Part shown: positions 35,581-50,792 of the stretch, piece by piece | How positions within the stretch are numbered: the stretch's first letter is position 1 | Layout of the letters: every line of letters begins with the position of its first letter | From: Jaenimonas drosophilae | Lineage: Eukaryota > Euglenozoa > Kinetoplastea > Trypanosomatida > Trypanosomatidae | DNA length: 64,000 nucleotides | Direction: 5' to 3' | Assembly (NCBI GenBank): GCA_030849065.1 | Contig: JASAON010001655.1 | Coordinates: 62,001 to 126,000, forward strand | Notes under the pieces: generated by a model | Told to the model about the DNA's origin: nothing | What the model saw: the letters and a program-made list of their open reading frames with translations, nothing else | Database searches by the model: none | Program-made: the position numbers and the translations under genes

Positions 35581-36166
35581 AGTTGCACGCAAGTGCTGAG
35601 CACACCGGTGCCCAACATGAACTTGCCTGCAAATGTCTTACACATAGATGTAGCATATTTACTCTTTCATTGCGAAGAGGTAGATCCCTGTGTTACTTGC
35701 ATCATGGTCCGATGCACATAGACGCACGATTCTTGTGTGATCGTGAGCGTCCATTGGAAGAGACGCAGGACCTGTACATGATTGCCTTTTCTCATTTTTT
35801 TTTTCTTACGTAACACGCCCTCCATTATGCGAGGCATTGTTCCCCTTTCTATATGTGCCGCACTCGCATAGATAGTCATCCACAGTGACACTGACCTACC
35901 ACAATCCTTCCCCCCCCCCTCCTGCACCGTCCGTTCGGGTAACTTGCTATTTCTTGAGTTATGCATGGCTGAACTGTTTTTCCAACTACACAGACATTGC
36001 CCCCTCCCCCTTCTTTCTCCCTACTTGCTCAACCTCCAGTGGCTGGTGTACAGCCATTGCTTTAGCCGTGTTGGTGATACAACAGACACGCAAAGATAGA
36101 TCCCCCTTTCCTTAATCTTACATTCTTCAGTATCAACGTGCTGCGCGGTGATTTGGTGGTTGCGAT
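35581..36166. other. Intergenic spacer between gene 3 and the frameshift locus
   Basis: 586 bases with a T run (about 35795-35806), a C run of about nine bases (35910-35919) and other pyrimidine tracts. No supported ORF. The downstream end carries a good acceptor-like signal. Confidence 0.55.
36101..36130 (+). promoter_or_regulatory. Putative spliced-leader acceptor for ORF A
   Basis: A pyrimidine-rich stretch ends in TTCTTCAG, AG at 36129-36130, 36 bases before the ATG of ORF A at 36167. No comparable signal precedes ORF B or ORF C. Confidence 0.45.
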
Positions 36167-36673
36167 ATGAGTAACCCCGACGCCGCTGGCAGCGCAAACC
36201 AAGTGGGCGAGGGCCCTGGCTCGCGCCTGCCGCCCCTCCGCCAACTCCCCCGTCGTCTCACGAGGGCAGATCGTGAGCAACGGGGACGCCGTCGCGCCCC
36301 TGTGGCTCCATCCCTAGACGAGCCAGAAAGTTGGGAGGATGAAGACGAGCTGATGCCCTACGAGGGCGCCTACCACACCGAGCCGCGCCGCATGACCCCT
36401 CGTGATTGGCGCGGTGCCTCTGGCCGTCCATCGTCTCAACGCATCGTTCTCTCTGGACGAAGCCCCACGCGCGGCCTTCCACCCTTGTTGGCCCCAACCC
36501 CGATGCTCACGGAGCGTCCCGCCATGCTGTACGTTGCCGGGCCAGCAGCGACGGCACTCTTGGGCAACACCAACCAAATGCGTCACCTCGCCAGCGGCGG
36601 AAACGCGGCGACGGCGCTCTACAACAACGCTCACCAAACGCCAAAAAACGCAAGGTGGGGAGTGGTCGTCTAA
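36167..36673 (+). CDS. ORF A: N-terminal frame of a -1 frameshifted giant gene (168 aa)
   Basis: Starts at ATG 36167, 36 bases after a strong acceptor-like signal, and ends at TAA 36671-36673. The product is Arg-, Pro- and Ala-rich with an acidic patch (E-S-W-E-D-E-D-E) and no recognised domain. Codon use is G/C-rich at third positions, like the neighbouring genes, so the frame looks translated. Eight codons before its stop it reads CCA AAA AAC, which contains the in-phase heptamer A_AAA_AAC. A -1 shift there enters ORF B. ORF B itself has no ATG before 36682, so ORF A is the natural entry to the locus. The alternative is a missing A in the six-A run, which would fuse A and B conventionally and create a P-K-K-R-K-V peptide. 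Confidence 0.7.
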   Translation: MSNPDAAGSANQVGEGPGSRLPPLRQLPRRLTRADREQRGRRRAPVAPSLDEPESWEDEDELMPYEGAYHTEPRRMTPRDWRGASGRPSSQRIVLSGRSPTRGLPPLLAPTPMLTERPAMLYVAGPAATALLGNTNQMRHLASGGNAATALYNNAHQTPKNARWGVVV

Positions 36674-36709
36674 GTGACGAAATGGCCCCATACACATCGG
36701 CTACTCCCC
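36643..36709 (+). promoter_or_regulatory. Putative -1 ribosomal frameshift site 1 (A_AAA_AAC + 12-bp stem)
   Basis: The heptamer AAAAAAC occupies 36643-36649, phased as CC A_AAA_AAC in frame A. After a 7-base spacer, GGGGAGTGGTCG (36657-36668) pairs with CGGCTACTCCCC (36698-36709): 12 continuous pairs, two of them G-U, around a 29-base loop. The frame A stop (36671) lies in the loop. A possible pseudoknot pairs loop bases 36675-36679 with 36747-36751 (5 bp). The heptamer and spacing match known viral -1 sites. Confidence 0.7.
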
Positions 36710-39700
36710 CTTTAGCTTTACTAGACAATCCTGCGGAACGCTATGGCGTCAGCAGCGATCGAAGTGAGGATTCCAATCCCAACCTGTTCCGCCTCCGCGT
36801 CTTCAGCGAGGATGAGGCCTACGAGCGCAACAAAATCACCATGGAGTTCTTCCGGAGCTACCCTCGATTTGCGGATCGAGGAGTACCCACGAAGTCCGGT
36901 GCTGCCGCCCCGCGCGAGGATGGCAGAGAATCGGCCGCCATCAACTTCATTCAGACCCGCCACCAGGTGCGTCTGGAGGGTGAATACTGGAAGGATGTAC
37001 TCCAGATTTGCCCAGACCGGCTTTCCTCCGCCTTCTGCGAGGATGTCGCACACACCATCAAGGTCCCGCTACGCAACGTGTCAGTGGACCGTACCTCGGC
37101 AGAGCAGGGGCTGGTGGTGCGCTACTACTTGAAGCACCCTGATACCCTGGACTCGCACAACATCAATGTTCGCATGCACCTTGCCCCATACAACGCCTGC
37201 TGGGAGCTCTACGGCGTGATTCTTGAGGAGCATCGCCTCCACCGCCAGAACGACAACTACTCCATGAGCCAGTCCAGTGACACCATGGTGCTCACCATTC
37301 CTTCCATCCTCTCCACCCCACAGGCACTGCTCTTCGACGAGGATGAGGAGATCATCAAGCAAAATGAAGATGCGGTGGAGGCCGCAGAGAGCGCGAACTC
37401 CTCCATCATCAACATCAACCCCTACACTCGCAAACCCGGTGACCTGGGTGCCGATGATATACCTCTCTCGGAGGATCTCACCTCGCACTCCGTCTTCTTT
37501 GAAGGACCACTGTGGAAGGAAGTACTCGATCGTTGGGCAGACGAGCTGTACGAAGCCTTCAAGAAGGATGTCTCGGATGCGGTTGGAGTTGAGCCAAAGG
37601 ATGTCGAAGACATTCAGCCCGAGTGCGTCGAGGGACTACTGATGAACTACAAACTTCATCATCGCGCAGATCTGGGAGTTGCCGTGATCAACCGCCGCGT
37701 AGATCGGTACGACATGCCAGAGACGTGGGAGCTCTTCTCGCGTCTGTCGAAGCTTCTCTGCATTGGCAAGAAGCGCCGTACCTTCGTCAAGAGGAAGCCA
37801 ATTATTCCCATTCGGCAGACCATTATGAACCCATTCCCACGCGAAACGGTACTGAGGGAGGCAGAGCGCAGACCTCCGGTGCGCATGGCGCGCAACATGT
37901 CCTACGTCTACCATGAGTCGGTGACCTCGGAGGAGGACGGCGTGGTGCCCAAGACCCCCGACCTTGCCTCCCCACCAGAGGGCTTCACCTCTCACACGAT
38001 GCTCTTCTTGGGTGAAGCCTGGAGTGATATTGTTCCACGCGTACCGGAATCCCTACGCGAGGCACTGCAGATGGATGTGATGAAGGTGCTTGGCCTTGGT
38101 GCCGACGATGTTCATGTCGCACGACCGCAGTGCGACGAAAACGGCATGCTCTTCTGCTACATGGTGCGCAAGCCAGACTACTCTGCCGAGGATGTTAACA
38201 ATGCCATTGACAACGATCCACTGGATTCTGTCTGGGCCCTTCATGAGCAGTACGTCCAAGGAAACTTGTCGTTACTGGACATGCTTAAGAAGTTCATGGG
38301 CAACGGCTGGGATCGGGTGCTGGCTAAGTACCCGAACGAGCTCCGAACCATCTTCGTTGAGGAGACTGCCGAGGCCCTTGGGGTGGACCCGAGCACCATT
38401 GAGATCGCCCAATTTGAAATGGGTAGTCTTCTCGTCAAGTTCAACGTCAAGTTCCCCGAGGTTCGCGATCCGGACCACCAAACCAACGTGCTCCACGCCC
38501 ACCCTTACTCACGTATTTGGAAGCTCTTTGCTCACGTTCAGGATGAGGAATCCACCTTCCGCACAGCCCAGCTCCGCCCTGGACAGGAAAACCAAATCGT
38601 TCAATCTCAACGTGGTGACCAACCCATTGAGTCCATGTACGACGAGTCCAATCCTCGCCCACGGCCCTATGCCCCGTACATTCCTCCTGCGCAGCAGGCC
38701 ATAGAAAACGATCCGTACCGGGAGGGCATTCCCGCGTACTCCTTTCCTGGAGGGGCAGGAGACCCATCGTCGTACCAGGGCTCTCCAGCGGAGCCGAGCT
38801 ATCCGTCAGCCCCGGTGTTCCCTGGAGATGCACCACCAACAACGTACCCGACTGTGCCACCTACCGGTGAACCTGGGGCGTATCCGGAAGCCCCTGCCTA
38901 CCCAGGAGCCCCTGCTTATCCTGGGGCAGCTCCGTATCCTCCCGCTAGTACGGCTCCCAAGTCACCCCAGTACCCACCCGCCGCAGCACCATCGGCCTAT
39001 CCATATCCGCCTTCCGGCGCCCCACCCTATCCTGGAGCACAGCAACAACCACCAGCAGCAGGGGCAGCGTACCCCCCATCGGCGGCCCCCGCGTACCCAG
39101 GAGCTCCTGGAGCTGTTCCGCCCTCCGCCACTGCCAAATCGCCTCAGTACCCGCCAGCACCAGGGCAGCCAGGGGGATACCCTCCTGCAGCAGCGGCATA
39201 TCCTGGAGCCCCACAGCCAGCAGCACCTGGGCAGTATCCTCCTGCTCCCAACTACCCTGGAGCCGCGCCTCCGTCGCTGCACTCCACTCCCGGCACCGCG
39301 CCACAAGGGCCCGCATATCCCCCGGCTGAGCAGGGCTACGCAGGATCGCGGGCCACCGGGCCCTACCCTCCTCCAGGATCGCCTGGTGGCTCTTCAGCGC
39401 AGGGCGGTGCGAGACCCCCTCAGTATCCACCAGCCGCAGGAGCACAGACCTCCCGCCCACCTCCTCCAGCCTCCTATGCTCCACCCCCACCCCCGCAGCC
39501 CTATGCTGGACGCGATGCGTCAGGAGTACCAAACCACCCGCCCCCCTCCACCAACCCAGGCGAGCCAGTCCCCTTTACGGTTCTTCAGCCTTTTGCCTTG
39601 GAGCTGGCGGAGTCGCCGTCGGCGGTGGTGCCAACCCGCGTGGCTGTCTCTCCCGGTTCCTCTGCGACGAACCAGCCCCAGAACTACCCCCCGCAAGGGA

Positions 39701-42700
39701 CCTCTGGCCAGCAGGGCAACTACGGCCAGGGGGCCCCAAACAATGCTGGCTCAGGCTACCCCACCCCGGCCGCATCAAGCTACCCCCCTCCGGCGAATGC
39801 AACTCCTGGTCAATCGTCTTTCAGCCCCAAGGATCCCTCCCAGGCTGGACTACGCCCAACCTTCCTCACTCCTGCCATTGGTGATCGCGGGTCGAGAGGT
39901 TCATTGGGAGGTCAGTCGCAGGGAAGCTCACGACGATCCAGCGCGTCCATTGACTTGGAGGAGCTTCTGCGCGATGTGCCTTCTCCGCTGCACTACCCTG
40001 GCAATCCTGGACCCTTTGTGCCGAACCCGGATGAAACCTTCACCCGGCACAACGTCTTCTTCGAAGGAAGCGAATGGAAGGATGTTGCAGCTCAGGGTCT
40101 TCGCCAGATTGCCACAGCCTTTGCCAAGGATCTCGCCGCTGCTGGCATTCCAGAGAAGAAGATTCGTGTGAGGGGGGTTCACGTGGCCCCAGAAGGTCTC
40201 CATATCACCTATGTGGCGCAACACAACCCCAACATGACCGAGGCGGAGATCAACGCACGGGTTGACAAGAGCAAGATGAGTAACGTGTGGGACCTTTTTG
40301 ATGCTTATACCCCTCGAAAGGCCAAGGTTCTCAGTATGCTCAAGCACTTCCCCGGTAGGGCATGGAAGCAGGTGCTCTCGCGGTACCCGAATGAGGTGCG
40401 CAACACCTTCGTTGAGGAGGCAGCAGAGGCGCTGCAGCTCGACGTTAGCGCGGTTCGACTCGTGGATACCGTACTCAGCTCCGACGGAGGAATCCTGTTC
40501 TCCATCCGATGTGAGCTACAGCAGGAGATGGATATTGGCATTCCTCGAGGAATGGTGGAGGACTTCCGCTATCCCCGTCTCGTCGCCCTCTACGTGGATG
40601 TTCGTGGCGCGTCGAAGCGGCAGTTCTCTGGTGGCCACGTCATTGACCTCATGAAGGTCTCCGCCGCTGCGCCACCCACCCGAAAGAGTGGGATGGTCTA
40701 CTCAGTGGGAGAGAATGAGGTCATCACCACACACAACGTCTTCTTCTTGGGACAACAGTGGATGGATGTCATTGAGCACAGTTATGGTGAGCTCTGCTAC
40801 GCCTTCACGCGGGATGTGGAGTTGGCCCTACCCATTGCCAAGGCTTGTGTGAACGTCTTCCACCCCACCTACTCCGATGGACTCTTCATGAGCTACTCCG
40901 TTCGCCACCACACCTCTCTCTCGATTGAGGAGATCAACGCGCGCGTGGATCAATCGTCCATGACCGCAACGTGGGCGTTGTGTGATGAGTACGACAACCC
41001 CACCGTCACCTCCCTTCGGATGCAGCGCCGCTTCTGCGGAAGTGGCTGGGTTCGTGTCCTGCAAACCCTCTCATCCAAGGTGGTGGCAACCTTCATTCAG
41101 GAAACCAGCACACTTCTCCAGGTCAATCCAGTCGACGTCCGCATCACGGACGTTGCCCTCGGTAGTCTCATCATCAACTTCGAAGTCCGCTTCCCACAAC
41201 AGCGCAATGCCAAGGAGGAGCGCAAGCGGGTTGGTGACCACGGCTATCCCATGGTGTGGCAGCTGTACAGCATTGAGAATCCCAAGGCGAACATTGACAT
41301 GCTCGCTCGTGAGAAGTTTATGCTCCCTTCTGCCAGTGAGGCACTGCCCATGGCACCTAACACGCTCTACGCCTTCGACTCCAACTCCTCCTCCAACGAT
41401 GATCCGAACAACAAGCTCGGTATTCCTGGCAGTGAGGGAGTGCTGGTGGCATATGATTCCAGTTCCTCCGAGGGCATGCGTGCCTTCAAGAACGGTGTCG
41501 GCGCCGTCACCGATGGCATCATGCACGCCTTTGAGTTAGAAGCCTCCGATGAGAACATCAAGCCCCCGCGAGAGATGGAGGTGGTGCCGATGGCTCCGGT
41601 GGAGGTCCTCCCGGTGGCCGCGCCGGCGGAGGAGAAGCCGAAGGAGCCCACACCTATTCACTCCGACTCTCTCCACGCCAGTGACTCCGAGTCCTCCGAG
41701 GCCTACCGCAACTTTTACACCCGCAACTACGCACAGCCTCTGCGGAACATTCCCGAGGTACTCCACGGCTTTGACTCACTCTCCTCTACCTCCTACCACG
41801 CCTTCTTTGAGCAGCAGCTTCAGAGCGGTCCACCGGGTGACCCGAACGCCATGCATGCCTTTGATTCGGAGTCGTCCTTTGAGTACCACATGCTGAATGA
41901 GAACAACCTGCGTCGCTTTGCCCGTCTTGTTCGTGGAGCTGAGGTGAATCTGTACGGAACCGTTGACCCCGCCGATCGGGAGAAGCGCCCCAAGGAGGAA
42001 CTGCAGGAGCGCGTGAAGGTGACCCCACTGGTGCCCTTCAAGGTCAAGTCGGACTGGCTTCACTTCTCCGCGGACTCGTCCTTGACGGTGTCGGCGGTGG
42101 AGACGGTACTCGAGGAGGATGACTTCTCGGAGCCCTCCACCCCGAGCATCACGGAGCGTGTGTCGGACCACACGCACTTCCTGGAGGGCGAACATTGGGA
42201 CATCGTCGTCAATAACTTCCGCGAGCAGCTGTGCTTTGCCATTGCGAATGACGTGGCCACCGCGATTGGTGCGTCGGACCGCAGCGTCTGCAACATCCGC
42301 CCCTACAGCAATGAGGATGGGCTCAATATCCACTATGCCATCACTCACACCGATCAGGTCAAGTATGGGGTTCGACGACTGGATGATCTTGTCCGAAGTG
42401 GCGGCATGCCTGCCACCATGGCCCTCTACCACAACTACGCCAAGTACATGTCCAGCCGTCTGGAGATGCAGAAGAAGTTCCCTGGTGACAAGTGGCCCTT
42501 CGTCCTCTCCCGCTTCCCCAACGAGGTTTGCACCATCTTCACGGAAGAAACCTGCGAGCTGCTGAAGCTCAAGTTTGATGCCGTGCAAATCGGTGAGATC
42601 TCGCTGGGTAGTCTGCTCATTGACTTTGAGGTGAACTTCCCATTCGCCTGCGATGTGTCGGAGCATCGAGCCAAGGTGGACGCCTACGACTACCCACGCT

Positions 42701-45700
42701 TGATGGCCCTCTACGCCAACACCTCCGAGGAGTCCTCGGAGAAGTCCGTCTCGGCCACACAGGTGAACAACTTCCCTGAGGAGACCGCGGTGCGTGCCAT
42801 CACGCCCGAGGGCGAAGTACGCGTCCAGCGAACTCCCACGCCCAGGATCGTCATGACACCCACGCCAGTTCCGGTGTCCCCCGTCAAGCCGGCCCTTCCC
42901 CCCATGACCCCACAGCGTGTCATCTTCCAGCGTGCCATTGAGAATGAGATTGAGGCCGTGGACCCGCCACCACTGGAGACGGCAGGTGTGCATGAGTACT
43001 ACCGCCACAAGCCAGGCAAGATTGTGACGGAGGTGAAGCACACCTTTGACGGCAAGTTCTGGAAGATTGTGTTGGAGCGAAACGATGAGGATGACATTCT
43101 CACCGCATTCGCAGAGGACGTTGCCAGTGCCCTCTCTGCAGAGACCTCGGCGGTCGAAGAGACAAAGCTGAGCCTAGACGGTACGGCTCTGCATCTTCGC
43201 TGCCTCTTCACGCACATGGATAGTACTTCCTCCAAGGTGGTCACAGAGACACTCAAGGAGGCCCCCTACACCAAGACATGGTCCTTCTACCGTACGTATG
43301 AGTCGAGTCTGTCCACGCAGCTGCAAATGGTGCGCAAGTTCAAGGGTCATCTGTGGCTCCGTGGGGTGGAGCTTGCTCCCACTGAAGTCTACCACCAGTG
43401 CTTCAAGGAGGAAACGGGAGAGGCGCTGGATATCCGCACGGGACGTGTGACGGTCCGTGGGGTTGAGGTGGTGAAGCACTCCGTCCACGTGGACTTCGAG
43501 GCACAATTCCCAGAGCCACGCGATTTGACGGACCAGACCGCGGCCATTGAGGCCTTTGCCTACCCACGCCTGGAGAAGCTGGGCGAGGAGATGGCCTCAA
43601 CGGCACAGGAGGAGGTCAAGGGCTCCGATGGGGATGACCAAGAGGCCACCATCGCTCTTTCCAAGACCTTTGACGGAGAATACTGGAGCACGGTGGCATT
43701 CCGCCAGCGCAAGGACCTTGTCGGGGCGTTGATGAATGATGTCTCTGGTGCGATTGGTGTGAGGCGCGAGGCCGTGGGGTCCATTAACTCGGTGATGCAG
43801 GAGGATGAGAATGGAGCGCCGACCGCAACGCTCCTGACTACCTACAATGTTCGCTATCCCGACTACATGACGGAGGAGCTCGTTCAGGAGAAGCACCAAG
43901 CCTGTGCCTTCACCGCCACCTGGGCCCTGTACCGGCGCTACGTGGATGGACTGACCTTGAGGATGGAGCGCGTCTTCCCCGGCGACTCATGGAAGCGGGT
44001 GTTGGAGCGCTTTCCAGATGAGATTCGCAGCATCTTCATGGAGGAGACGAGCGACATCCTCGATGTTCGAAAGGCCCGCGTCAATGTGACGAGCGTAACC
44101 GAGGGGAGTCTCGTGGTGGGATTCGAAGTGGCCTTCCCCGACTCCCGCGACATCCCTGCCCAGCAGAACATTGTTCTCAAGTACGGCTACCCGAAGCTCA
44201 CTCGACTCTACGCGGAGCTTCGTCAGCGTCTCAAGGATGAGCAGGATGAGGCTGAACGGAAGCCAGCAACCCCGCCCGCCCCGCCAACCCCTCCAGCCAA
44301 CATCTTTGTGCAGCACGTGGCCGAGGAGAATCGCTGGATGGACAGCGTCAGCCCTCCACCCCTTCGGATGAAGCGTGGTAAGGGACTCCGTGAAGAACAG
44401 AAGGAGATCCCACCCTTCCTCACCCACTCCTCCCACTCCGTCTTCTTTGAGGGAGACCACTGGGACTCCGTCTTCAGCCACGACCCGAAGGCCCTTCACG
44501 ACGCCTTCTGCACCGACGTGGCCGGCTGCCTAAGCTTAGAGACCTCAGCCATTAGCAAGGTCACCCCACAGTACGGGGATGGCCTGCTCATGAACTTCTC
44601 TGCCGAGCACATGTCCACGTTGACGGCGGCAGCCATCAACGACATGGTAGTGACCTGTGACTTTGTGGCGGTATGGGCACTCTACGAGCAGTTCGTAGCT
44701 GCCCTGGAGCGAGCACATCAGTCGCCCTCCGTTCCAGTCCTGAAGGTTTGCCCGGACACGTACCTCAGTGAGCCACTGCCCGTCTACCCAGAACACCATG
44801 GAGGAATCATTGAGCCACCGTCGCTCCCCAACACACCCCACCTCTCCTTGCTTCGCGAAGGTCGGCTCTCCCCAAGCCCGTCGATGGCTGCCCATACCAT
44901 CTTCGAGGCCAAGATCACGGAGCAGGCCCACGACCATGTGGAGAAGCCTCACACGTCGACTCACGTGCTGAACCTAGATGGAGAGGAGTGGGGCTCGGTG
45001 CTGGCCGACTGCCGCACCGACCTCAACGTGGCTGCCGAACATGATCTCGCCACACACCTCTCCGATGACGCCATCGCTGGTGTTCGCCTGGCGGCCCAGA
45101 ACGGGCTAAACATCCGCTTCACCGTCAACCAGCCCAACAACGTCCTCTCCGCCGAGGCCATCAACGAACAGTCCCCACAGTGGCCCATGGATGCTGTGTG
45201 GGCCGTCTACCGAAACTGGGAGCAGGACTACGGCAATCAGCTCGACATGCGACGCATCTTCACTGGCAGTGGCTGGGCGCGCACGTTGGAGATGTTCCCC
45301 GATGAGGTGCGGGCGGCCTTCGCCGAGGAGACGGCCGAGGCTCTCGGTATTCCCGTCGAGGAGGTTGACATTCACAACCTCCAAATTGGTAGTCTGCTCG
45401 TGGACTTCACCGCACGCTTTGGTGAGAAGCGGCAGCTGACGAAGCAGCGCAACCAGGTTGAGAACTTCCCATATCCAAAACTTCTGGCGCTCTATCATCG
45501 TGCGCAGAATGCCGTTGCCCAGACCGAGGCAGCACCGGTGGAGGAGCCGCAGATGGTGGAACAGAAACCGGCGGAGGACCAGCCCACAGCCTCGACCCTG
45601 TCCGGCAGCTTCAAGGGCTCCGCCTGGTCGTGGCTGGCATCCAAGCGTGTGCGCGATCTCAAGACCGCATACCGCGGTGATGTCTCGGAAGCTGCCAAGA

Positions 45701-47238
45701 TTAGCCCAGACGACGTCAGCAATGTGGAGCTCATGTCTGCCTTTGGTGTGCTCATTGTAAACTCAAACCTGAACACCAAGCGCAGCCCGCTCAGCCAGGA
45801 CCGCGCCCACGAACAGATCCGGCGCTCGACCTACCCTCGCATGTGGAAGCTCTACCGCGAGGCGGAACAACAGCTTCAGCAGCAACAACAACAACAGCAG
45901 CAGCAGGAATCTAGGATGGAGCAGCCCAGGTTCAACCAGGATGCTGGATCGCGCGTGGCGACGAGGTGGCCTGCCCCCACGCCGCCACTCGACGTTCCCC
46001 CACTGCCACTTCCACCCAAGCCTCGCAGCCCCAAGGTGGACGCAAACAACTGGCGGTACTTCGACGCCTCCCTACCCGGACCAGGGTGGAAGGCCATCTT
46101 CACGGAGGCACCCGATGAGCTCTCCAAGGCCTTGAAGGACGACATTGCGCGTCAGGTGGGCCTCCCCAACGCCCAGTCCATCAACATCGTCATCAATGCC
46201 GATGAGAAGGCGCTCGACACGGTCTACTCACTGAAGCTCCCCGTTGGCACCCCCACCTCGGAGGTTCACGAGATGCTCGCCAACAACACCTTCCCCCGAA
46301 CGTGGGCGCTCTACAAGAACCGCACCAGTAGTGAGCGCTTCAATGAGCAGCCGTCGGCCCTTCGTCAGCAAAAAGCCTGGAATGTACCCAGTCCGGTGCA
46401 CCGCTATCACTCCGACCAGCAGGTGGAGAAGCTCGACAAGGGTACCACCACTGACCGCCCCGCCACCCCGGAGACCTTAACGCCAGAGTTGGCGGTGAAG
46501 CGGCAGCCCGTTGTTGTGCGGGAGGTGGAGTCGCGGCTCCTGACCCCAGAAGCCACCAAGTCCGAGTTGAGGCAAATGGCGACCGTCACGCCCTCCACCC
46601 TGCGAAGCGTGCGCTCAGATGATTCATCCGAATACTCGGGTGCCTTTGGCTTCCATTTGGATGGCGCGGGCTGGGACAAGATTCTGGACCGCCGGCGCGA
46701 GGAGCTGAAGCGGTGCATCTGCCTCGACATCTCCACCGCCGTGGGGCTGCCCCTCTCGTCCGTGGATAACGTGCAGCCTCATGTCACAAATGGGTTGTCC
46801 GTCTACTTTTCACTCATCTTCCCCAAGTCGGAGAACACCAACAATATCATTGACCTGGTCCGCAACCACTCCTTCCCCAAGACCTGGGATCTCTATCATG
46901 AATACCACCCCCTCACCTCGGCCCACGTGGTGGCCTTCCGTCGTCAGTTTGATGGCCACGGCTGGCGTCCCGTCGTGAAGGATCGTAGCACCATGATTGA
47001 GCGTTTCTTTGTGGATGAGACCGCCACCCTCTTGTCTGTGAGTCAAGACATGGTTAGAAATGTATTGCTGGATATGTGCCATGATGGTCGCTTGGTGATT
47101 CAGTGCGACGTCACCTTTGAGGAACCACGTGACCCTGGCGTGGTGAGCGCCATGGTGAGCAACCACCCCTACCACTCCATTGTGGAGCTCTACCAACGTG
47201 CGGTCCAGGGAGAGATGTTTGGATCTCATTTAAACTAG
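36649..47238 (+). CDS. ORF B: 21-domain FAZ1-like protein, entered by -1 frameshift
   Basis: Given from the first codon after the proposed shift (CGC at 36649); the first ATG in this frame is 36682. It holds 21 copies of the shared domain, starting near 36950, 37480, 37987, 38284, 40042, 40338, 40728, 41022, 42165, 42468, 43024, 43330, 43657, 43963, 44430, 44955, 45247, 45595, 46057, 46639 and 46930. Many come as pairs: a first type with H-S-V-F-F-E-G-x-x-W, then about 20 residues, then a second type with F-x-G-x-x-W ... E-E-T-A-E-A-L and G-S-L-L-V-x-F. A Pro/Tyr/Ala-rich linker (38740-39800), a region of H-A-F-D-S-x-S-S motifs (41370-42070) and a poly-Gln run (45871-45906) separate groups. 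The frame ends in TAG directly after the second slippery heptamer. Likely a cytoskeletal or flagellar attachment protein (inference). Confidence 0.85.
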   Translation, partial: RKVGSGRLSDEMAPYTSATPPLALLDNPAERYGVSSDRSEDSNPNLFRLRVFSEDEAYERNKITMEFFRSYPRFADRGVPTKSGAAAPREDGRESAAINFIQTRHQVRLEGEYWKDVLQICPDRLSSAFCEDVAHTIKVPLRNVSVDRTSAEQGLVVRYYLKHPDTLDSHNINVRMHLAPYNACWELYGVILEEHRLHRQNDNYSMSQSSDTMVLTIPSILSTPQALLFDEDEEIIKQNEDAVEAAESANSSIININPYTRKPGDLGADDIPLSEDLTSHSVFFEGPLWKEVLDRWADELYEAFKKDVSDAVGVEPKDVEDIQPECVEGLLMNYKLHHRADLGVAVINRRVDRYDMPETWELFSRLSKLLCIGKKRRTFVKRKPIIPIRQTIMNPFPRETVLREAERRPPVRMARNMSYVYHESVTSEEDGVVPKTPDLASPPEGFTSHTMLFLGEAWSDIVPRVPESLREALQMDVMKVLGLGADDVHVARPQCDENGMLFCYMVRKPDYSAEDVNNAIDNDPLDSVWALHEQYVQGNLSLLDMLKKFMGNGWDRVLAKYPNELRTIFVEETAEALGVDPSTIEIAQFEMGSLLVKFNVKFPEVRDPDHQTNVLHAHPYSRIWKLFAHVQDEESTFRTAQLRPGQENQIVQSQRGDQPIESMYDESNPRPRPYAPYIPPAQQAIENDPYREGIPAYSFPGGAGDPSSYQGSPAEPSYPSAPVFPGDAPPTTYPTVPPTGEPGAYPEAPAYPGAPAYPGAAPYPPASTAPKSPQYPPAAAPSAYPYPPSGAPPYPGAQQQPPAAGAAYPPSAAPAYPGAPGAVPPSATAKSPQYPPAPGQPGGYPPAAAAYPGAPQPAAPGQYPPAPNYPGAAPPSLHSTPGTAPQGPAYPPAEQGYAGSRATGPYPPPGSPGGSSAQGGARPPQYPPAAGAQTSRPPPPASYAPPPPPQPYAGRDASGVPNHPPPSTNPGEPVPFTVLQPFALELAESPSAVVPTRVAVSPGSSATNQPQNYPPQGTSGQQGNYGQGAPNNAGSGYPTPAASSYPPPANATPGQSSFSPKDPSQAGLRPTFLTPAIGDRGSRGSLGGQSQGSSRRSSASIDLEELLRDVPSPLHYPGNPGPFVPNPDETFTRHNVFFEGSEWKDVAAQGLRQIATAFAKDLAAAGIPEKKIRVRGVHVAPEGLHITYVAQHNPNMTEAEINARVDKSKMSNVWDLFDAYTPRKAKVLSMLKHFPGRAWKQVLSRYPNEVRNTFVEEAAEALQLDVSAVRLVDTVLSSDGGILFSIRCELQQEMDIGIPRGMVEDFRYPRLVALYVDVRGASKRQFSGGHVIDLMKVSAAAPPTRKSGMVYSVGENEVITTHNVFFLGQQWMDVIEHSYGELCYAFTRDVELALPIAKACVNVFHPTYSDGLFMSYSVRHHTSLSIEEINARVDQSSMTATWALCDEYDNPTVTSLRMQRRFCGSGWVRVLQTLSSKVVATFIQETSTLLQVNPVDVRITDVALGSLIINFEVRFPQQRNAKEERKRVGDHGYPMVWQLYSIENPKANIDMLAREKFMLPSASEALPMAPNTLYAFDSNSSSNDDPNNKLGIPGSEGVLVAYDSSSSEGMRAFKNGVGAVTDGIMHAFELEASDENIKPPREMEVVPMAPVEVLPVAAPAEEKPKEPTPIHSDSLHASDSESSEAYRNFYTRNYAQPLRNIPEVLHGFDSLSSTSYHAFFEQQLQSGPPGDPNAMHAFDSESSFEYHMLNENNLRRFARLVRGAEVNLYGTVDPADREKRPKEELQERVKVTPLVPFKVKSDWLHFSADSSLTVSAVETVLEEDDFSEPSTPSITERVSDHTHFLEGEHWDIVVNNFREQLCFAIANDVATAIGASDRSVCNIRPYSNEDGLNIHYAITHTDQVKYGVRRLDDLVRSGGMPATMALYHNYAKYMSSRLEMQKKFPGDKWPFVLSRFPNEVCTIFTEETCELLKLKFDAVQIGEISLGSLLIDFEVNFPFACDVSEHRAKVDAYDYPRLMALYANTSEESSEKSVSATQVNNFPEETAVRAITPEGEVRVQRTPTPRIVMTPTPVPVSPVKPALPPMTPQRVIFQRAIENEIEAVDPPPLETAGVHEYYRHKPGKIVTEVKHTFDGKFWKIVLERNDEDDILTAFAEDVASALSAETSAVEETKLSLDGTALHLRCLFTHMDSTSSKVVTETLKEAPYTKTWSFYRTYESSLSTQLQMVRKFKGHLWLRGVELAPTEVYHQCFKEETGEALDIRTGRVTVRGVEVVKHSVHVDFEAQFPEPRDLTDQTAAIEAFAYPRLEKLGEEMASTAQEEVKGSDGDDQEATIALSKTFDGEYWSTVAFRQRKDLVGALMNDVSGAIGVRREAVGSINSVMQEDENGAPTATLLTTYNVRYPDYMTEELVQEKHQACAFTATWALYRRYVDGLTLRMERVFPGDSWKRVLERFPDEIRSIFMEETSDILDVRKARVNVTSVTEGSLVVGFEVAFPDSRDIPAQQNIVLKYGYPKLTRLYAELRQRLKDEQDEAERKPATPPAPPTPPANIFVQHVAEENRWMDSVSPPPLRMKRGKGLREEQKEIPPFLTHSSHSVFFEGDHWDSVFSHDPKALHDAFCTDVAGCLSLETSAISKVTPQYGDGLLMNFSAEHMSTLTAAAINDMVVTCDFVAVWALYEQFVAALERAHQSPSVPVLKVCPDTYLSEPLPVYPEHHGGIIEPPSLPNTPHLSLLREGRLSPSPSMAAHTIFEAKITEQAHDHVEKPHTSTHVLNLDGEEWGSVLADCRTDLNVAAEHDLATHLSDDAIAGVRLAAQNGLNIRFTVNQPNNVLSAEAINEQSPQWPMDAVWAVYRNWEQDYGNQLDMRRIFTGSGWARTLEMFPDEVRAAFAEETAEALGIPVEEVDIHNLQIGSLLVDFTARFGEKRQLTKQRNQVENFPYPKLLALYHRAQNAVAQTEAAPVEEPQMVEQKPAEDQPTASTLSGSFKGSAWSWLASKRVRDLKTAYRGDVSEAAKISPDDVSNVELMSAFGVLIVNSNLNTKRSPLSQDRAHEQIRRSTYPRMWKLYREAEQQLQQQQQQQQQQESRMEQPRFNQDAGSRVATRWPAPTPPLDVPPLPLPPKPRSPKVDANNWRYFDASLPGPGWKAIFTEAPDELSKALKDDIARQVGLPNAQSINIVINADEKALDTVYSLKLPVGTPTSEVHEMLANNTFPRTWALYKNRTSSERFNEQPSALRQQKAWNVPSPVHRYHSDQQVEKLDKGTTTDRPATPETLTPELAVKRQPVVVREVESRLLTPEATKSELRQMATVTPSTLRSVRSDDSSEYSGAFGFHLDGAGWDKILDRRREELKRCICLDISTAVGLPLSSVDNVQPHVTNGLSVYFSLIFPKSENTNNIIDLVRNHSFPKTWDLYHEYHPLTSAHVVAFRRQFDGHGWRPVVKDRSTMIERFFVDETATLLSVSQDMVRNVLLDMCHDGRLVIQCDVTFEEPRDPGVVSAMVSNHPYHSIVELYQRAVQGEMFGSHLN
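38740..39800 (+). repeat. Pro/Tyr/Ala-rich YPGAP-type repeats in ORF B
   Basis: Irregular repeats of Y-P-G-A-P, Y-P-P-A-A and Q-Y-P-P-A between domains 4 and 5. They resemble annexin/spectrin-linker-type PGAY sequence and are probably a disordered linker. Confidence 0.8.
41370..42070 (+). repeat. HAFDS-x-SS motif cluster in ORF B
   Basis: About eight copies of [LM]-[HYV]-[AG]-[FYS]-[DE]-[SL]-x-[SA]-S, often followed a few residues later by Y-H-x-[FL] or Y-R-x-F. Spacing is irregular (25-50 residues). This looks like a set of short linear binding or phosphorylation motifs; no family is recognised. Confidence 0.65.
45871..45906 (+). repeat. Poly-glutamine tract in ORF B
   Basis: CAG/CAA codons give about a dozen Gln residues just after domain 18. 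Mixed codons make it less slippage-prone than a pure CAG run. Confidence 0.85.
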
Positions 47239-47305
47239 AGCCGCAACTTGCACTGATGATGAACCCCTCTCACCCCGGCACACGCCAAGTTGCGGCATCC
47301 GTGCC
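47229..47305 (+). promoter_or_regulatory. Putative -1 ribosomal frameshift site 2 (U_UUA_AAC + 11-bp perfect stem)
   Basis: The heptamer TTTAAAC lies at 47229-47235, phased CA T_TTA_AAC in frame B and followed at once by the frame B stop TAG (47236-47238). Four bases after the heptamer, GCCGCAACTTG (47240-47250) pairs perfectly with CAAGTTGCGGC (47286-47296) around a 35-base loop. A -1 shift reads CTA GAG CCG CAA CTT GCA CTG ATG, straight into ORF C. A second pairing (47277-47281 with 47301-47305) could make a pseudoknot, but its connecting loop of 4 bases is short for an 11-bp stem. Confidence 0.75.
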
Positions 47306-50300
47306 ACCCCCCTCCCTGGCCTCTTTCCTCATTGACCCCTCCCTCGCCCCCCTGGTGTCCGTGATGGCGATGACGGAGCCCGCGCCAGGCAAGGGAGAGA
47401 ATGGCGACCCGTCCCCAGACCCGTCTGAGTGCTCCTGGATGGAACTCTCTGAAAGCGCCTCCATGGACTCCTGTGGTGGTTCTGACCTAGACAGTTCTTT
47501 CCTCTTCCCTGTACGCCATCCTCACGACCGTAGTCTCACACCTGACTTTATACAAATTTCCGTAGTTCAGGCCGCTGGCGTTGGCGCGGCAGATGGCGCC
47601 ACCGCCCCGGGCGGCGCTACGCCTAGTAGCGCGGCAGCCTCCGGCTCTGCCGCCGCCTCCGGTGGCGACGGCGGCGGCCGACCACCCCTCCCTCCCCGAC
47701 CTCCCCCTCCCCCATCTCCTGGCGGGCCTGGGCATAATCCGCCGTCCACCGCCGCCTTCGAATCCGATGCCAAACTCGTGGTGTCGAAGCATTCCATCTT
47801 CCTCCACGGTGACCACTGGGGCTACATGGTTAATAACCGACGCGCCGAGCTCACGGAGCTCTTCCAGCTCGATGTGGAGAACGCCCTCAGTGCCTTCATG
47901 AAGGACGTGCAGTGGGCTGGCCTCACAGACATTGGCTCGTCGGTGAGCGAACACCCCTGTGGGGCTACCTTCTTCTATCTCACGCGACATCGCGAGGCCT
48001 TCGACACCGCGAAGGTGGACGTCACAGTGAAGGGAAGCTACCTAGGCCGGACGTGGAGGCTGTACCTCACCTACGCCGGCATCAGCTCTCGCGGACGACG
48101 TGATGAGCACTGCTTTAATCTTCGGCCCATGAATATACGTACCAAGGTAACCCGTCCGACACGTGACAGTCAATCCACCATGGCCTCTTCCTACACCTCA
48201 GGCACACACTCACTCATGAGCAGCGAGGTGCAGAACTCCAACCCTAGTTTCTATGACATATCCGAGTGCTCCTCCACCGCGGAGAAGATCAGTGGCATCA
48301 TCATTGGGCGAGTACGTGGGATGCCGCGGTACAGCACCACAGAGACGCCCAACCGTGAGCCCAGTCCTCAAAGCGCGGCTCAAGTAGGGAACCAGGCTCT
48401 GCAATCTGACAACTTCCCCAGTGGACGAACCAGCTTGCGACCGCACTCAGCCTACCTGATGGATTCTGAGGAAGAAGGAGCCAAGCACTCCCTTCAGGCG
48501 CTGCAATCCCAAAGCCTTCCAACCGATACGGTACAGCGCAGAACGCAAGAGGCTGGCTTCTCTGCCGCAGACGAAGGTCACATGGCCCTTCGATCGCGCG
48601 CCATGTCCTCGGCCCCGGCCTACAGCGCATCTGGCGTGCGGTACTTGGATGGGGCGTGCCGCACCGAGTCGCCGCCACTCAACTGCTTCCGATCCGCTGA
48701 CGTGTCCAAGGAGTTGGTGGGCTCTGCTCCCGTCACCCCATCCAATATGCTCTTTGGAAGCCTCAATGAATATGGAGATGCCCCTGGGCCTCAGCACAAC
48801 GCCCTTCAGCGATCGGCCTACATGGATTCCGTGGCGGGTCGCAGTGCGGCGGACTCGCAGCGCGGCTACCTGGAGTCTCAAGATGGGCAGGAGCCCTACA
48901 GCGAGGGTCAGGATGCTATGCGCTCACGCTTCATGGAATCCCGTGCGCCGAGCACGGCTTACTCCCAGTTTGGGGACATCTCCCCAGAGCGGGAGCAGGA
49001 GCCGCATCATCCCATCCGGGAAGAGGCTGAATCCCTTAGTCTCGCCTCCCAGGCCCATGGCACTCCGCCCCTTCGACGTGGAGACGTGTGCTCGGAGAAT
49101 GAAGAGCCGCCATACTTTGAGGGACAGGATGCACTGCGCTCACGCTACCTTGACACCCCACACCAAAGTGCCGCCCGCTCCCGCTATGGGGATGTCACCC
49201 CAGAGGGGGAGATGCACCCCAACTCGGAAGCCCATGATGCGATGCGTTCGCGCTACATGGACTCTCGAGCGCCAAGTACGGCCTACTCCCAAGCTGGCGA
49301 CATTACCCCTGAAGGGGGGGAGGACCCCAACTCGGAAGCTCGTGACACCATGCGCTCACGCTACATGGAGTCCCGCGCACCAAGTACGGCCTACTCCCAA
49401 GCCGGCGATATAGTTTCTGAAGGTGAGATGCAGCCCATGGCAGAGACCCACTCCGCGATTCAGTCCCAGTACATGAATTCCTGTGCGCCAAGCACGGTGG
49501 GCTCCGAGTACGGCGACGTTCGCCCCGAAGGCGAACTTGAGCCCAACTCGGAGGCCCACGATACGATGCGCTCCCGCTACATGGATTCACGTGCGCCAAG
49601 TATAGCCTACTCCCAGGCTGGTGATGTAGCTTCTGAGAAAGGGATGGAGCCCAACTCGGAGGCCCACGATACGTTGCGGTCACGCAACATGGCGTCTCGA
49701 GCTCCCAGTATAGCCTACTCCCAGGCTGGTGATGTAGCTTCTGAGAAAGGGATGGAGCCCAACTCGGAGGCCCACGATACGTTGCGGTCACGCAACATGG
49801 CGTCTCGAGCTCCCAGTATAGCCTACTCCCAGGCTGGTGATGTAGCTTCTGAGGAAGGGATGGAGCCCAACTCGGAAGCTCGCGACACCATGCGCTCCCG
49901 CTACATGGACTCCCGTGCGCCAAGTACGGCCTACTCCCATGCTGGTGAAGTCTCCTCCGAAGATGAGCAGCGGCCCAACTCGGAGGCCCACGATGCAATG
50001 CGCTCACGCAATTTGGAGTCTCGAGCTCAGAGTAACGCCTTCTCGCAGCTGGGCGAGGTGAGCTCAGAGGAGGAGATGGCGCCAAGCCCACAGTCTCGTG
50101 CCGCGTTGCGTTCGAAGGATATTCCCGTGTCCCGTGCCAGCGTCAATCAGATCAAGTATGGCACCATGACTGCACGTGTGCTACAGAGCCCAAAGCGGCC
50201 TCTTCGCTACTCCCTCACCTCCCGCTACCTCCCCGCAGCCGATACTGCCGTCAACGGCCATCATCGAACCATGCGTGAGGCGGAGCGCAAGCCACCACCA

Positions 50301-50792
50301 GCGAAGCCCGTTGAAAAGAAGGCTCCTCCACCACAGAAGAAACCTCCGCCAACACCGCCACCCAAGCCTCTCCCCCAGACACGTGCCCGATGCACGCGGA
50401 AGGCCATTGCGTCTAGTCTCTTACCCGCCAACAGCGGCCCATCACCCCACGGCATCTACTCCAAGAGTCTCCGTGAGAAGGAGCGCAGGCCAAAGTCCCC
50501 AACCCCCGTTGTTATCTGGAAGGAGCAGCCATCGAGAGAGACAACGCCAAGTATCGTGGATGAGGTGGTTGAGGTGCCACCTCAACCACGCTCCACGCGC
50601 GGCCGCCTTCACTACCTCGTATCTCGCCCAAGCAGGCGTGCTCATCAGCTCTTGAATGCCCTCAACGGTGCTGAGTCCGCGATGCACACGAGATATGCTG
50701 GCATACGCCGTCGGTTATACCCCATGATAGATGGCGATTCTACTCCGCCGTCAAAGCCCGCCAATGGACGACGAAAAGGCGGGACGAAGTAA
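47235..50792 (+). CDS. ORF C: C-terminal frame of the frameshifted locus (1 domain, 36-aa repeats)
   Basis: Given from the first codon after the proposed shift (CTA at 47235); the first ATG is 47256 (1178 aa from there), only 17 bases after the ORF B stop. The frame is also open upstream through the end of ORF B. The product has a Pro/Ala/Ser-rich leader, one shared domain (about 47788-48075, H-S-I-F-L-H-G-D-H-W ... T-W-R-L-Y), an array of 36-residue repeats (48885-50090) and a Pro/Lys-rich basic tail, ending in TAA. No pyrimidine tract suitable for trans-splicing lies just before the ATG, unlike every other gene here. An independent gene with its splice site inside ORF B is possible but less economical. 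Confidence 0.8.
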   Translation, partial: LEPQLALMMNPSHPGTRQVAASVPPPSLASFLIDPSLAPLVSVMAMTEPAPGKGENGDPSPDPSECSWMELSESASMDSCGGSDLDSSFLFPVRHPHDRSLTPDFIQISVVQAAGVGAADGATAPGGATPSSAAASGSAAASGGDGGGRPPLPPRPPPPPSPGGPGHNPPSTAAFESDAKLVVSKHSIFLHGDHWGYMVNNRRAELTELFQLDVENALSAFMKDVQWAGLTDIGSSVSEHPCGATFFYLTRHREAFDTAKVDVTVKGSYLGRTWRLYLTYAGISSRGRRDEHCFNLRPMNIRTKVTRPTRDSQSTMASSYTSGTHSLMSSEVQNSNPSFYDISECSSTAEKISGIIIGRVRGMPRYSTTETPNREPSPQSAAQVGNQALQSDNFPSGRTSLRPHSAYLMDSEEEGAKHSLQALQSQSLPTDTVQRRTQEAGFSAADEGHMALRSRAMSSAPAYSASGVRYLDGACRTESPPLNCFRSADVSKELVGSAPVTPSNMLFGSLNEYGDAPGPQHNALQRSAYMDSVAGRSAADSQRGYLESQDGQEPYSEGQDAMRSRFMESRAPSTAYSQFGDISPEREQEPHHPIREEAESLSLASQAHGTPPLRRGDVCSENEEPPYFEGQDALRSRYLDTPHQSAARSRYGDVTPEGEMHPNSEAHDAMRSRYMDSRAPSTAYSQAGDITPEGGEDPNSEARDTMRSRYMESRAPSTAYSQAGDIVSEGEMQPMAETHSAIQSQYMNSCAPSTVGSEYGDVRPEGELEPNSEAHDTMRSRYMDSRAPSIAYSQAGDVASEKGMEPNSEAHDTLRSRNMASRAPSIAYSQAGDVASEKGMEPNSEAHDTLRSRNMASRAPSIAYSQAGDVASEEGMEPNSEARDTMRSRYMDSRAPSTAYSHAGEVSSEDEQRPNSEAHDAMRSRNLESRAQSNAFSQLGEVSSEEEMAPSPQSRAALRSKDIPVSRASVNQIKYGTMTARVLQSPKRPLRYSLTSRYLPAADTAVNGHHRTMREAERKPPPAKPVEKKAPPPQKKPPPTPPPKPLPQTRARCTRKAIASSLLPANSGPSPHGIYSKSLREKERRPKSPTPVVIWKEQPSRETTPSIVDEVVEVPPQPRSTRGRLHYLVSRPSRRAHQLLNALNGAESAMHTRYAGIRRRLYPMIDGDSTPPSKPANGRRKGGTK
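48885..50090 (+). repeat. 108-nt (36-aa) tandem repeats in ORF C
   Basis: About eleven units of N-S-E-A-H-D-x-M-R-S-R-Y-M-x-S-R-A-P-S-x-A-Y-S-Q. Units 49661-49768 and 49769-49876 differ essentially by one base. The array is in frame and partly homogenised. Confidence 0.9.

What the first reader, a model, noticed from the sequence alone, without database searches (positions are those of the whole stretch)
36167..50792. A cellular giant gene apparently read through two successive -1 frameshifts (A to B to C)
Seen: three long frames in series, each entered by exactly -1, each at a canonical in-phase heptamer (A_AAA_AAC, then U_UUA_AAC), each followed by a long stem at about the right distance. 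ORF B has no ATG before the first site. B and C are 17 bases apart. The fused product (about 4875 aa) matches neighbouring paralogues in size and domain content. Known: this pair of heptamers, in this order, is used at the gag-pro and pro-pol junctions of deltaretroviruses such as BLV and HTLV-1. Inference: one mRNA yields graded amounts of A, A-B and A-B-C, setting the ratio of a short subunit to two giant structural proteins. I know of no described double -1 frameshift in a kinetoplastid nuclear gene, but could not search.
Basis: partly seen in the sequence, partly recalled or inferred. Interest (0 to 1): 0.95.

Follow-up and report, generated by a model that had tools for sequence, protein, structure and literature searches.

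The report
Giant gene with two ribosome frameshifts
A nuclear gene for a giant cytoskeletal protein in a single-celled flagellate appears to be read by making the ribosome slip back one base twice, a trick best known from retroviruses, and the first slip signal is shared with a duplicated sister gene.

Summary
Confirmed: A (36167-36673), B (open 36406-47238) and C (open 47133-50792) lie in successive -1 frames. Codon usage switches within 36602-36672 and 47212-47237, ranges holding in-phase A_AAA_AAC (36643-36649) and U_UUA_AAC (47229-47235). Helices of 12 bp (after 7 nt) and 11 bp (after 4 nt) follow; 10 of 6000 random coding positions match either. A wider scan found both plus J0, opening the sister giant gene P0. 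J0 is homologous to J1: same heptamer, phase, spacer, stem and distance to the 0-frame stop, amid strongly diverged proteins. A simple scan saw polypyrimidine/AG sites before A and A', none just before the ATGs of B, C or P0. An error at J1 would have to be repeated at J0; J2 is single-copy and rests on anatomy and on C's tail matching P0's. Best reading: two programmed -1 frameshifts yield A (168 aa), A-B (3690) and A-B-C (4875). Expression is untested and orthologues were out of reach. Searches listed no such trypanosomatid nuclear gene.

The parts
36000..36038 (+). polypyrimidine tract (36000-36022) and first AG (about 36038): likely trans-splice acceptor; the first ATG after it is A's
   Evidence: simple consensus scan; not experimental
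36167..36673 (+). ORF A, 168 aa: basic, Pro/Ser/Arg-rich, no Pfam match; shared N-terminal extension of all three products
   Evidence: codon score 22.6; 49 in-frame gene ORFs have median 22.0
36643..36649 (+). slippery heptamer 1 (J1), A_AAA_AAC, in A's phase
36657..36709 (+). stem-loop 1: 36657-36668 with 36698-36709, 12 bp, spacer 7, loop 29 holding A's stop codon and B's first ATG; 9 of its pairs kept in J0, one with a compensatory change
36406..47238 (+). ORF B (-1 relative to A), translated part from about 36649: array of FAZ1_cons (PF23398) domains, 20 matched stretches; last domain ends about 47199, 10 codons before J2
47229..47235 (+). slippery heptamer 2 (J2), U_UUA_AAC, in B's phase, directly followed by B's stop codon
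47240..47296 (+). stem-loop 2: perfect 11-bp stem 47240-47250 with 47286-47296, spacer 4, loop 35
   Evidence: this exact stem occurs once in the genome
47133..50792 (+). ORF C (-1 relative to B), first ATG 47256: linker, one more FAZ1_cons domain (about 47778-48065), then a Ser/Pro-rich tail whose C-terminus matches that of paralogue P0
49203..50026 (+). 7.6 copies of a 108-base (36-aa) repeat inside C's tail
1..6612 (+). 3' half of P0 (C364:56070-68612, 4180 aa from its apparent ATG), closest paralogue of B; its J1-like site J0 lies left of the window at C364:56058-56064
7409..20785 (+). P1, FAZ1_cons giant paralogue (4458 aa), one frame, no shift signal found
21397..35580 (+). P2, FAZ1_cons giant paralogue (4727 aa), one frame, no shift signal found

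Best explanation
One trans-spliced nuclear mRNA starts at A's ATG. At A_AAA_AAC (36643-36649) a fraction of ribosomes, held up by the 12-bp stem 7 nt downstream, slip back one base and enter B; the rest read 7 more codons and stop, giving A (168 aa). Ribosomes that finish B's FAZ1_cons array reach U_UUA_AAC (47229-47235), where a second stem-loop makes some slip back again and add the C tail; the others stop at once. The products are A, A-B (3690 aa) and A-B-C (4875 aa), sharing one N-terminus, with the slip rates fixing their ratio. Shown by sequence: frames, codon-usage switch ranges, heptamers in phase, stems, and a homologous first signal (J0) in the paralogue P0. Inferred: trans-splicing at 36038, that slippage occurs, how often, that the three products exist, and that their ratio matters for the flagellum attachment zone.
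For: Codon usage supports A, B and C as coding, each in its own frame, with switch ranges 36602-36672 and 47212-47237 (95%). In-phase heptamers are rare (26 in 56,210 codons) and helices this strong rare (10 of 6000); none of the other 25 heptamers reaches it. A scan of seven held sequences from six contigs, not centred on the finding though its criteria were set after seeing it (525,514 bases counting both strands), gave 18 heptamers bridging a 0-frame to a -1 frame; the three best helices were J2, J1 and the new J0. On contig C364 alone, 3 of 14 in-phase bridging heptamers had a helix at or below -15, against 1 of 13 and 1 of 15 in the two out-of-phase controls, and 134 of 3000 random bridging positions (23 of 3000 at or below -19.6). 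J0 and J1: same heptamer, phase, 7-nt spacer, 0-frame stop after 9 open codons counted from the heptamer, 28 of 37 bases identical ungapped (reached by 1 of 200,000 random pairs), and a 9-bp stem kept with a U-A/C-G change. A pattern made from both matches exactly these two places in 18.8 Mb. The first ATG after the nearest polypyrimidine/AG site is A's (36167) and that of A' (C364:55678); none was found in the 515 bases before B's first ATG, the 556 before C's, or in A' before P0's ATG. C's last 90 residues match P0's last 90 (0 of 1000 shuffles as good; P1, P2, G1 not), so A-B-C looks like one P0-like protein split by frame.
Against: No reads, cDNA, proteomics, ribosome profiling or reporter data. 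No orthologue could be reached. J2 has no second copy and P0 does without it, so conservation supports J1 only. The J2 spacer of 4 nt is short (typical 5-9, recalled). Whole-fold z-scores are modest. Bridging heptamers as such are not more frequent in phase (14 against 13 and 15; with at least 300 codons beyond, 5 against 1 and 7), and one out-of-phase heptamer has a stronger helix (-30.3). The compensatory change is one pair in two sequences and carries no statistical weight (256 of 500 shuffles). A and A' are not alignable over their length (119 of 1000 shuffles as good). In an unrestricted comparison the C-P0 tail match is weak (E 0.57). B's first 130 residues match all four paralogues (0 of 1000 shuffles each), P2 best, so they do not single out P0. 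No pseudoknot beyond chance (5-bp pairings, expected in 82-89% of random cases).
Confidence: 0.82

Rival explanations
1. J1 is a true programmed -1 frameshift but J2 is a sequencing or assembly indel, or a recent mutation in this strain, so B and C are really one frame (or the strain makes a shortened protein).
For: J2 has no second copy in the genome; the paralogue P0 has array and tail in one frame.
Against: The switch is confined to 47212-47237. Within it sits one of the two in-phase U_UUA_AAC heptamers found in 56,210 coding codons, followed by a perfect 11-bp stem of a strength seen at 10 of 6000 positions. TTTAAAC is not a long homopolymer run. The three close ORF pairs that I looked at elsewhere on the contig do not look like split genes.
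Confidence: 0.1
2. A (and A') are long upstream ORFs: B and P0 start at their own ATGs (36682; C364:56070) by leaky scanning or reinitiation, and C likewise by reinitiation at 47256. The stems regulate that instead of frameshifting.
For: P0 and B both have an ATG near the site; A's stop lies 8 bases before B's ATG, and B's stop lies 17 bases before C's ATG.
Against: P0's ATG corresponds to GTG in B (KKRTMGSGLLS against KKRKVGSGRLS), so the start is not conserved while heptamer and spacer are. Leaky scanning would have to pass 7 ATGs before B's and 5 before P0's, A's and A' own included. A scores as coding in its own frame. The in-phase heptamers would be unneeded.
Confidence: 0.07
3. A, B and C are separate trans-spliced mRNAs with acceptor sites inside the preceding ORF.
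For: Trypanosomatid genes are normally expressed from tandem arrays by trans-splicing (established knowledge); the simple scan could miss weak sites.
Against: No polypyrimidine/AG site by that scan in the 515 bases before B's ATG or the 556 before C's, nor in A' before P0's ATG, while 5 of 5 intergenic stretches tested have one or more. It does not explain the heptamers or the stems.
Confidence: 0.03
4. The gene is a decaying pseudogene, or both junctions are base errors.
For: A six-A run at J1 is a typical place for length errors; the assembly holds some N (110 in this contig).
Against: J0, a diverged homologue of J1 with the same frame relation, would need the same error independently. About 4870 codons stay open, with gene-like codon usage in the stretches scanned.
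Confidence: 0.03

Closest known systems
Double -1 frameshift genes of beta- and deltaretroviruses (MMTV, HTLV: gag-pro-pol)
   Same: Three frames entered by two successive -1 shifts, giving three nested products from one mRNA (PMC5009743, passages).
   Different: Here a nuclear gene with only FAZ1_cons found by Pfam in B and C and nothing in A; the products are giant repeat proteins, not Gag/protease/polymerase; the first signal is shared with a cellular paralogue.
PEG10 and PNMA-type domesticated retroelement genes
   Same: Chromosomal gene using a -1 frameshift (PEG10: PMC5009743, passages; that it is -1 is recalled).
   Different: Retroelement-derived and, as recalled, with one shift; no retroelement domain was found here.
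Euplotes genes with two frameshifts
   Same: More than one shift in one nuclear gene of a protist (PMC5009743, passages).
   Different: Euplotes shifts are +1 at stop codons (abstract starts of PMC10235951 and PMC4759687, listing); they do not use X_XXY_YYZ with a stem (recalled).
FAZ1 / giant FAZ cytoskeletal proteins of trypanosomatids
   Same: FAZ1_cons (PF23398) arrays in a tandem cluster of giant genes.
   Different: No held paper has both the family terms and the frameshift terms searched. Giant trypanosomatid proteins are reported as gel doublets (PMC5358337, passages), which would be compatible but has other explanations.

Membership tests
Programmed -1 ribosomal frameshift signal (X_XXY_YYZ type) | slippery heptamer in the 0-frame phase inside the ORF overlap | tested here: met
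   J1, J2 and J0
Programmed -1 ribosomal frameshift signal (X_XXY_YYZ type) | stable RNA structure a few bases downstream | tested here: met
   12 bp at 7 nt; 11 bp at 4 nt; 9 bp at 7 nt for J0; whole-fold z-scores -1.3 to -2.5; no pseudoknot beyond chance
Programmed -1 ribosomal frameshift signal (X_XXY_YYZ type) | evolutionary conservation of the signal | tested here: inconclusive
   met for J1 through the paralogue site J0; no second copy of J2; orthologues out of reach
Programmed -1 ribosomal frameshift signal (X_XXY_YYZ type) | measured frameshifting or a transframe product | not testable with these tools
   needs reporter, mass spectrometry or ribosome profiling
Retroviral / retroelement gag-pro-pol gene | Gag, protease or reverse transcriptase domains in the shifted frames | tested here: not met
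   A none; B and C only FAZ1_cons in Pfam at E 0.001
FAZ1-like giant protein family | FAZ1_cons (PF23398) domains above the curated cut-off | tested here: met
   B 929.7 bits, 20 stretches; C 25.5 bits as a whole protein, below the 27.5 cut-off, though its domain scores 30.5 in the genome search
FAZ1-like giant protein family | location in the flagellum attachment zone | not testable with these tools
   needs tagging or antibodies

The most novel reading that the evidence does not exclude
A cellular, non-retroelement nuclear gene of a trypanosomatid uses two programmed -1 frameshifts in series to make three nested proteins up to 4875 aa. The first shift is an ancestral feature of this branch of the giant FAZ1-like family (P0 and A/B/C both have it) and sets how much giant filament protein is made relative to a small N-terminal subunit; the second, younger one sets the share of filament units that carry the C tail.
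Probability: 0.68. Interest if true: 0.93.

Novelty: new variant of a known kind. Interest (0 to 1): 0.87.

Why it matters
[quoted passage not shown] This would be such a case, with two -1 shifts in one mRNA and a paralogue-conserved first signal, in a lineage for which my searches listed none in nuclear genes. It gives a testable means of fixing the stoichiometry of giant cytoskeletal proteins where genes are transcribed together and transcriptional control is weak (established knowledge). It also warns that annotators may call A, B and C three genes, or a pseudogene, and may start P0 too late.

Tried and rejected
Orthologues: the protein search with ORF B gave none at E 0.001 among the 2412 candidates scored. 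Scans of viral contigs and genome contigs with 600 aa of B's N-terminal part gave 6 and 28 pattern matches and no relative by tblastn.

Pseudoknots: the longest loop-to-downstream pairing is 5 bp at J1, J0 and J2, expected by chance in 82-89% of cases; rejected as evidence.

Other frameshift candidates on the contig: I looked at three close ORF pairs, not at each gene. 494-1576/1577-3817 is a noise ORF beside a tyrosyl-tRNA synthetase; 139466-140458 and 140512-142260 have unrelated Pfam domains (RanBP zinc finger above its cut-off; EF-hand below its cut-off); 144388-145647/145641-146531 is a gene-like ORF beside a noise ORF (noise judged by eye from the translations). Other FAZ1_cons contigs: in the pieces of C335, C293, C220, C216 and C178 that I held, 4 bridging heptamers, the best helix -13.2. 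C259 and C321 were not looked at.

A-A' homology over their length: not detectable (119 of 1000 shuffles as good). In one search, 12 of 139 ORFs outside the gene set score at least as high as A; these include A itself, B itself and several that one search lists as likely genes, so A's coding score is gene-like but not unique.
Full report
WHAT IS THERE. The window is bases 62001-126000 of a 214,490-base contig (C364) of an 18.8-Mb genome without a name. The contig carries a long run of same-strand genes with a tandem cluster of giant FAZ1_cons (PF23398) genes: G1 (C364:44713-53814), P0 (56070-68612), P1, P2, then A/B/C, followed by an SPT6-like gene. FAZ1_cons is found in none of 14 control genomes and 115 times in this one. 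A double-length tyrosyl-tRNA synthetase on the contig matches PDB 3p0h and 5usf over its length at 955 and 952 bits; from memory these are Leishmania enzymes, and the tool gives no organism. So I take this for a trypanosomatid (inference), and the alignment shows clear differences from those two enzymes.

CHECK OF THE OBSERVATION. A, B and C occupy frames 2, 1 and 0. A codon model trained on 51,929 codons of the contig places the A-to-B switch between 36602 and 36672 and the B-to-C switch between 47212 and 47237 (95% ranges; sliding windows agree). Both ranges contain an in-phase X_XXY_YYZ heptamer, A_AAA_AAC and U_UUA_AAC. Downstream lie a 12-bp helix after 7 nt and a perfect 11-bp helix after 4 nt. 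Rates: 26 in-phase heptamers in 56,210 codons (J2 counted; J1 lies outside the gene set used), helices as strong at 10 of 6000 random in-frame positions, and none as strong at the other 25 heptamers, the nearest being -18.4 and -18.1. Multiplying rates by overlap (88 and 34 codons) gives about 6.5e-5 and 2.5e-5 (my arithmetic, rates taken as independent). Whole-region folding z-scores are weaker, -1.3 to -2.5.

WIDER SCAN AND THE THIRD SITE. One search looked at both strands of contig C364 and of pieces of C335, C293, C220, C216 and C178 (525,514 bases counting both strands) for any of 24 heptamers that join a frame open for 80 codons upstream to a -1 frame running at least 100 codons past the 0-frame stop. 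Its criteria were set after I had seen J1 and J2, but it was not centred on them. It returned 18 rows. The three with the best helices were J2, J1 and a site not in the finding: J0 at C364:56058, 5.9 kb left of the window. The next best helix was -13.2. On C364 alone, 14 in-phase bridging heptamers had 3 helices at or below -15; the two out-of-phase versions gave 13 and 15 heptamers with one each, and one of those (146047) has a helix of -30.3. Random in-phase bridging positions reach -15 in 134, -19.6 in 23 and -22.8 in 6 of 3000 cases. Heptamers alone are not enriched in phase: 14 against 13 and 15, or 5 against 1 and 7 when the -1 frame runs at least 300 codons on. So neither heptamers nor hairpins alone are proof; it is their combination at coding-frame switches that is rare.

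J0 IS THE HOMOLOGUE OF J1. J0 ends a short ORF A' (ATG C364:55678) and opens the -1 frame of P0, the paralogue with the highest-scoring matches to B in the listing (first 80 lines shown). Both sites have A_AAA_AAC, a 7-nt spacer, TGGGGAG[T/C]GG as left arm and CTCCCCCTTTA at the right arm, and a 0-frame stop after 9 open codons counted from the heptamer. The 0-frame ends read KNARWGVVV and KNGRWGAVC; the -1 frames read KKRKVGSGRLS and KKRTMGSGLLS. In a 9-bp stem common to both, all cells pair and one pair is U-A in J1 and C-G in J0; with two sequences this has no statistical force (256 of 500 shuffles). Sliding the partner by 1 to 3 columns drops pairing to 59-80%. Ungapped identity is 28 of 37 bases across the element, reached by 1 of 200,000 random pairs; 12-nt windows farther than 36 bases upstream of the heptamer match at 0-5 of 12, and the last two downstream windows at 2 and 5, where a length difference in the loop also breaks the register. 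Around this element the proteins have diverged greatly: B and P0 are 19-40% identical in the matched stretches shown, and A and A' cannot be aligned over their length. A pattern made from both matches these two places and no other in the genome. A frame relation and signal kept across such divergence is the strongest argument that J1 is used. P0 has an ATG at 56070 just after its heptamer, so an annotator would start P0 there; in B the same position is GTG.

START SITES. By a simple scan, a 23-base polypyrimidine tract at 36000 and an AG at about 36038 lie before A, with no ATG between that AG and A's; a 16-base tract and AG at C364:55662 lie directly before A'. No tract was found within A before B's first ATG, within the last 556 bases before C's first ATG, or within A' before P0's ATG; chance gives about 0.2 in the first two. 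Leaky scanning to B's ATG would pass 7 ATGs, A's own included.

WHY B AND C BELONG TOGETHER. B ends shortly after its last FAZ1_cons domain (domain end about 47199, J2 at 47229), so the unshifted product ends on a complete domain. C carries one more such domain (30.5 bits; 25.5 bits as a whole protein, below Pfam's cut-off), then a Ser/Pro-rich tail with 36-aa repeats. C's last 90 residues match P0's last 90 (score 51, 0 of 1000 shuffles) and not those of P1, P2 or G1 (839, 544 and 710 of 1000 shuffles as good). In an unrestricted comparison the same match is weak (E 0.57). B's first 130 residues match all four paralogues (0 of 1000 each, P2 scoring highest), because the domain family is shared, so they do not single out P0. 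P0 carries array and tail in one frame. So A-B-C looks like one P0-like protein split by frame, and J2 is a later gain here or a loss in P0. J2 itself has no second copy.

MECHANISM. Tandem slippage of two tRNAs at X_XXY_YYZ is the best-characterised -1 mode in eukaryotes (PMC3498833, start of abstract in the listing); the role of a 3' stem-loop is established knowledge. Loop-to-downstream pairing does not exceed chance, so I see stem-loops, not pseudoknots. Expected products are 168, 3690 and 4875 aa. That the ratio matters is inference; a review reports efficiencies of 23% and 8% for the two steps in one retrovirus (PMC5009743, passage), which shows only that such cascades work.

LITERATURE. 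Ten searches were made. Those combining frameshifting with trypanosomatid, kinetoplastid, Trypanosoma, Leishmania, FAZ1, flagellum attachment zone or spliced-leader terms and one for successive shifts in nuclear genes listed, by title and abstract start, none on a trypanosomatid nuclear gene; I saw 20 of 121 papers, (cellular frameshifting) 10 of 30. Only open-licence PMC papers are held. Of PMC5009743 I saw passages, of PMC5358337 passages, the other papers only as listings.

VERDICT. J1 I hold at about 0.9, both together at 0.82; the rival odds overlap, since a rival can hold for one junction only. What is missing is expression and orthologues.

Noticed in passing
C364:55618-56088 (L007; left of the window): A third A_AAA_AAC plus stem site (J0) ends a short ORF A' (ATG 55678) and opens the paralogue P0 (4180 aa) in the -1 frame; P0's apparent ATG at 56070 is probably not its true start.
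   Followed up: yes
window 36640-36665: B's frame right at the slip site reads KKRKVGSG, preceded by P if the shift happens at the heptamer: from memory the same letters as the classic SV40-type nuclear localisation signal; J0 reads KKRTMGSG, so it is probably chance.
   Followed up: no
window 49203-50026: 7.6 copies of a 36-aa repeat (108 bases, 75% matches) in C's tail.
   Followed up: no
C364:146047 (L011): A 12-bp helix (-30.3) 6 nt after an out-of-phase GGGTTTT, in an ORF that looks like noise and holds an undetermined base.
   Followed up: no
   Followed up: partly
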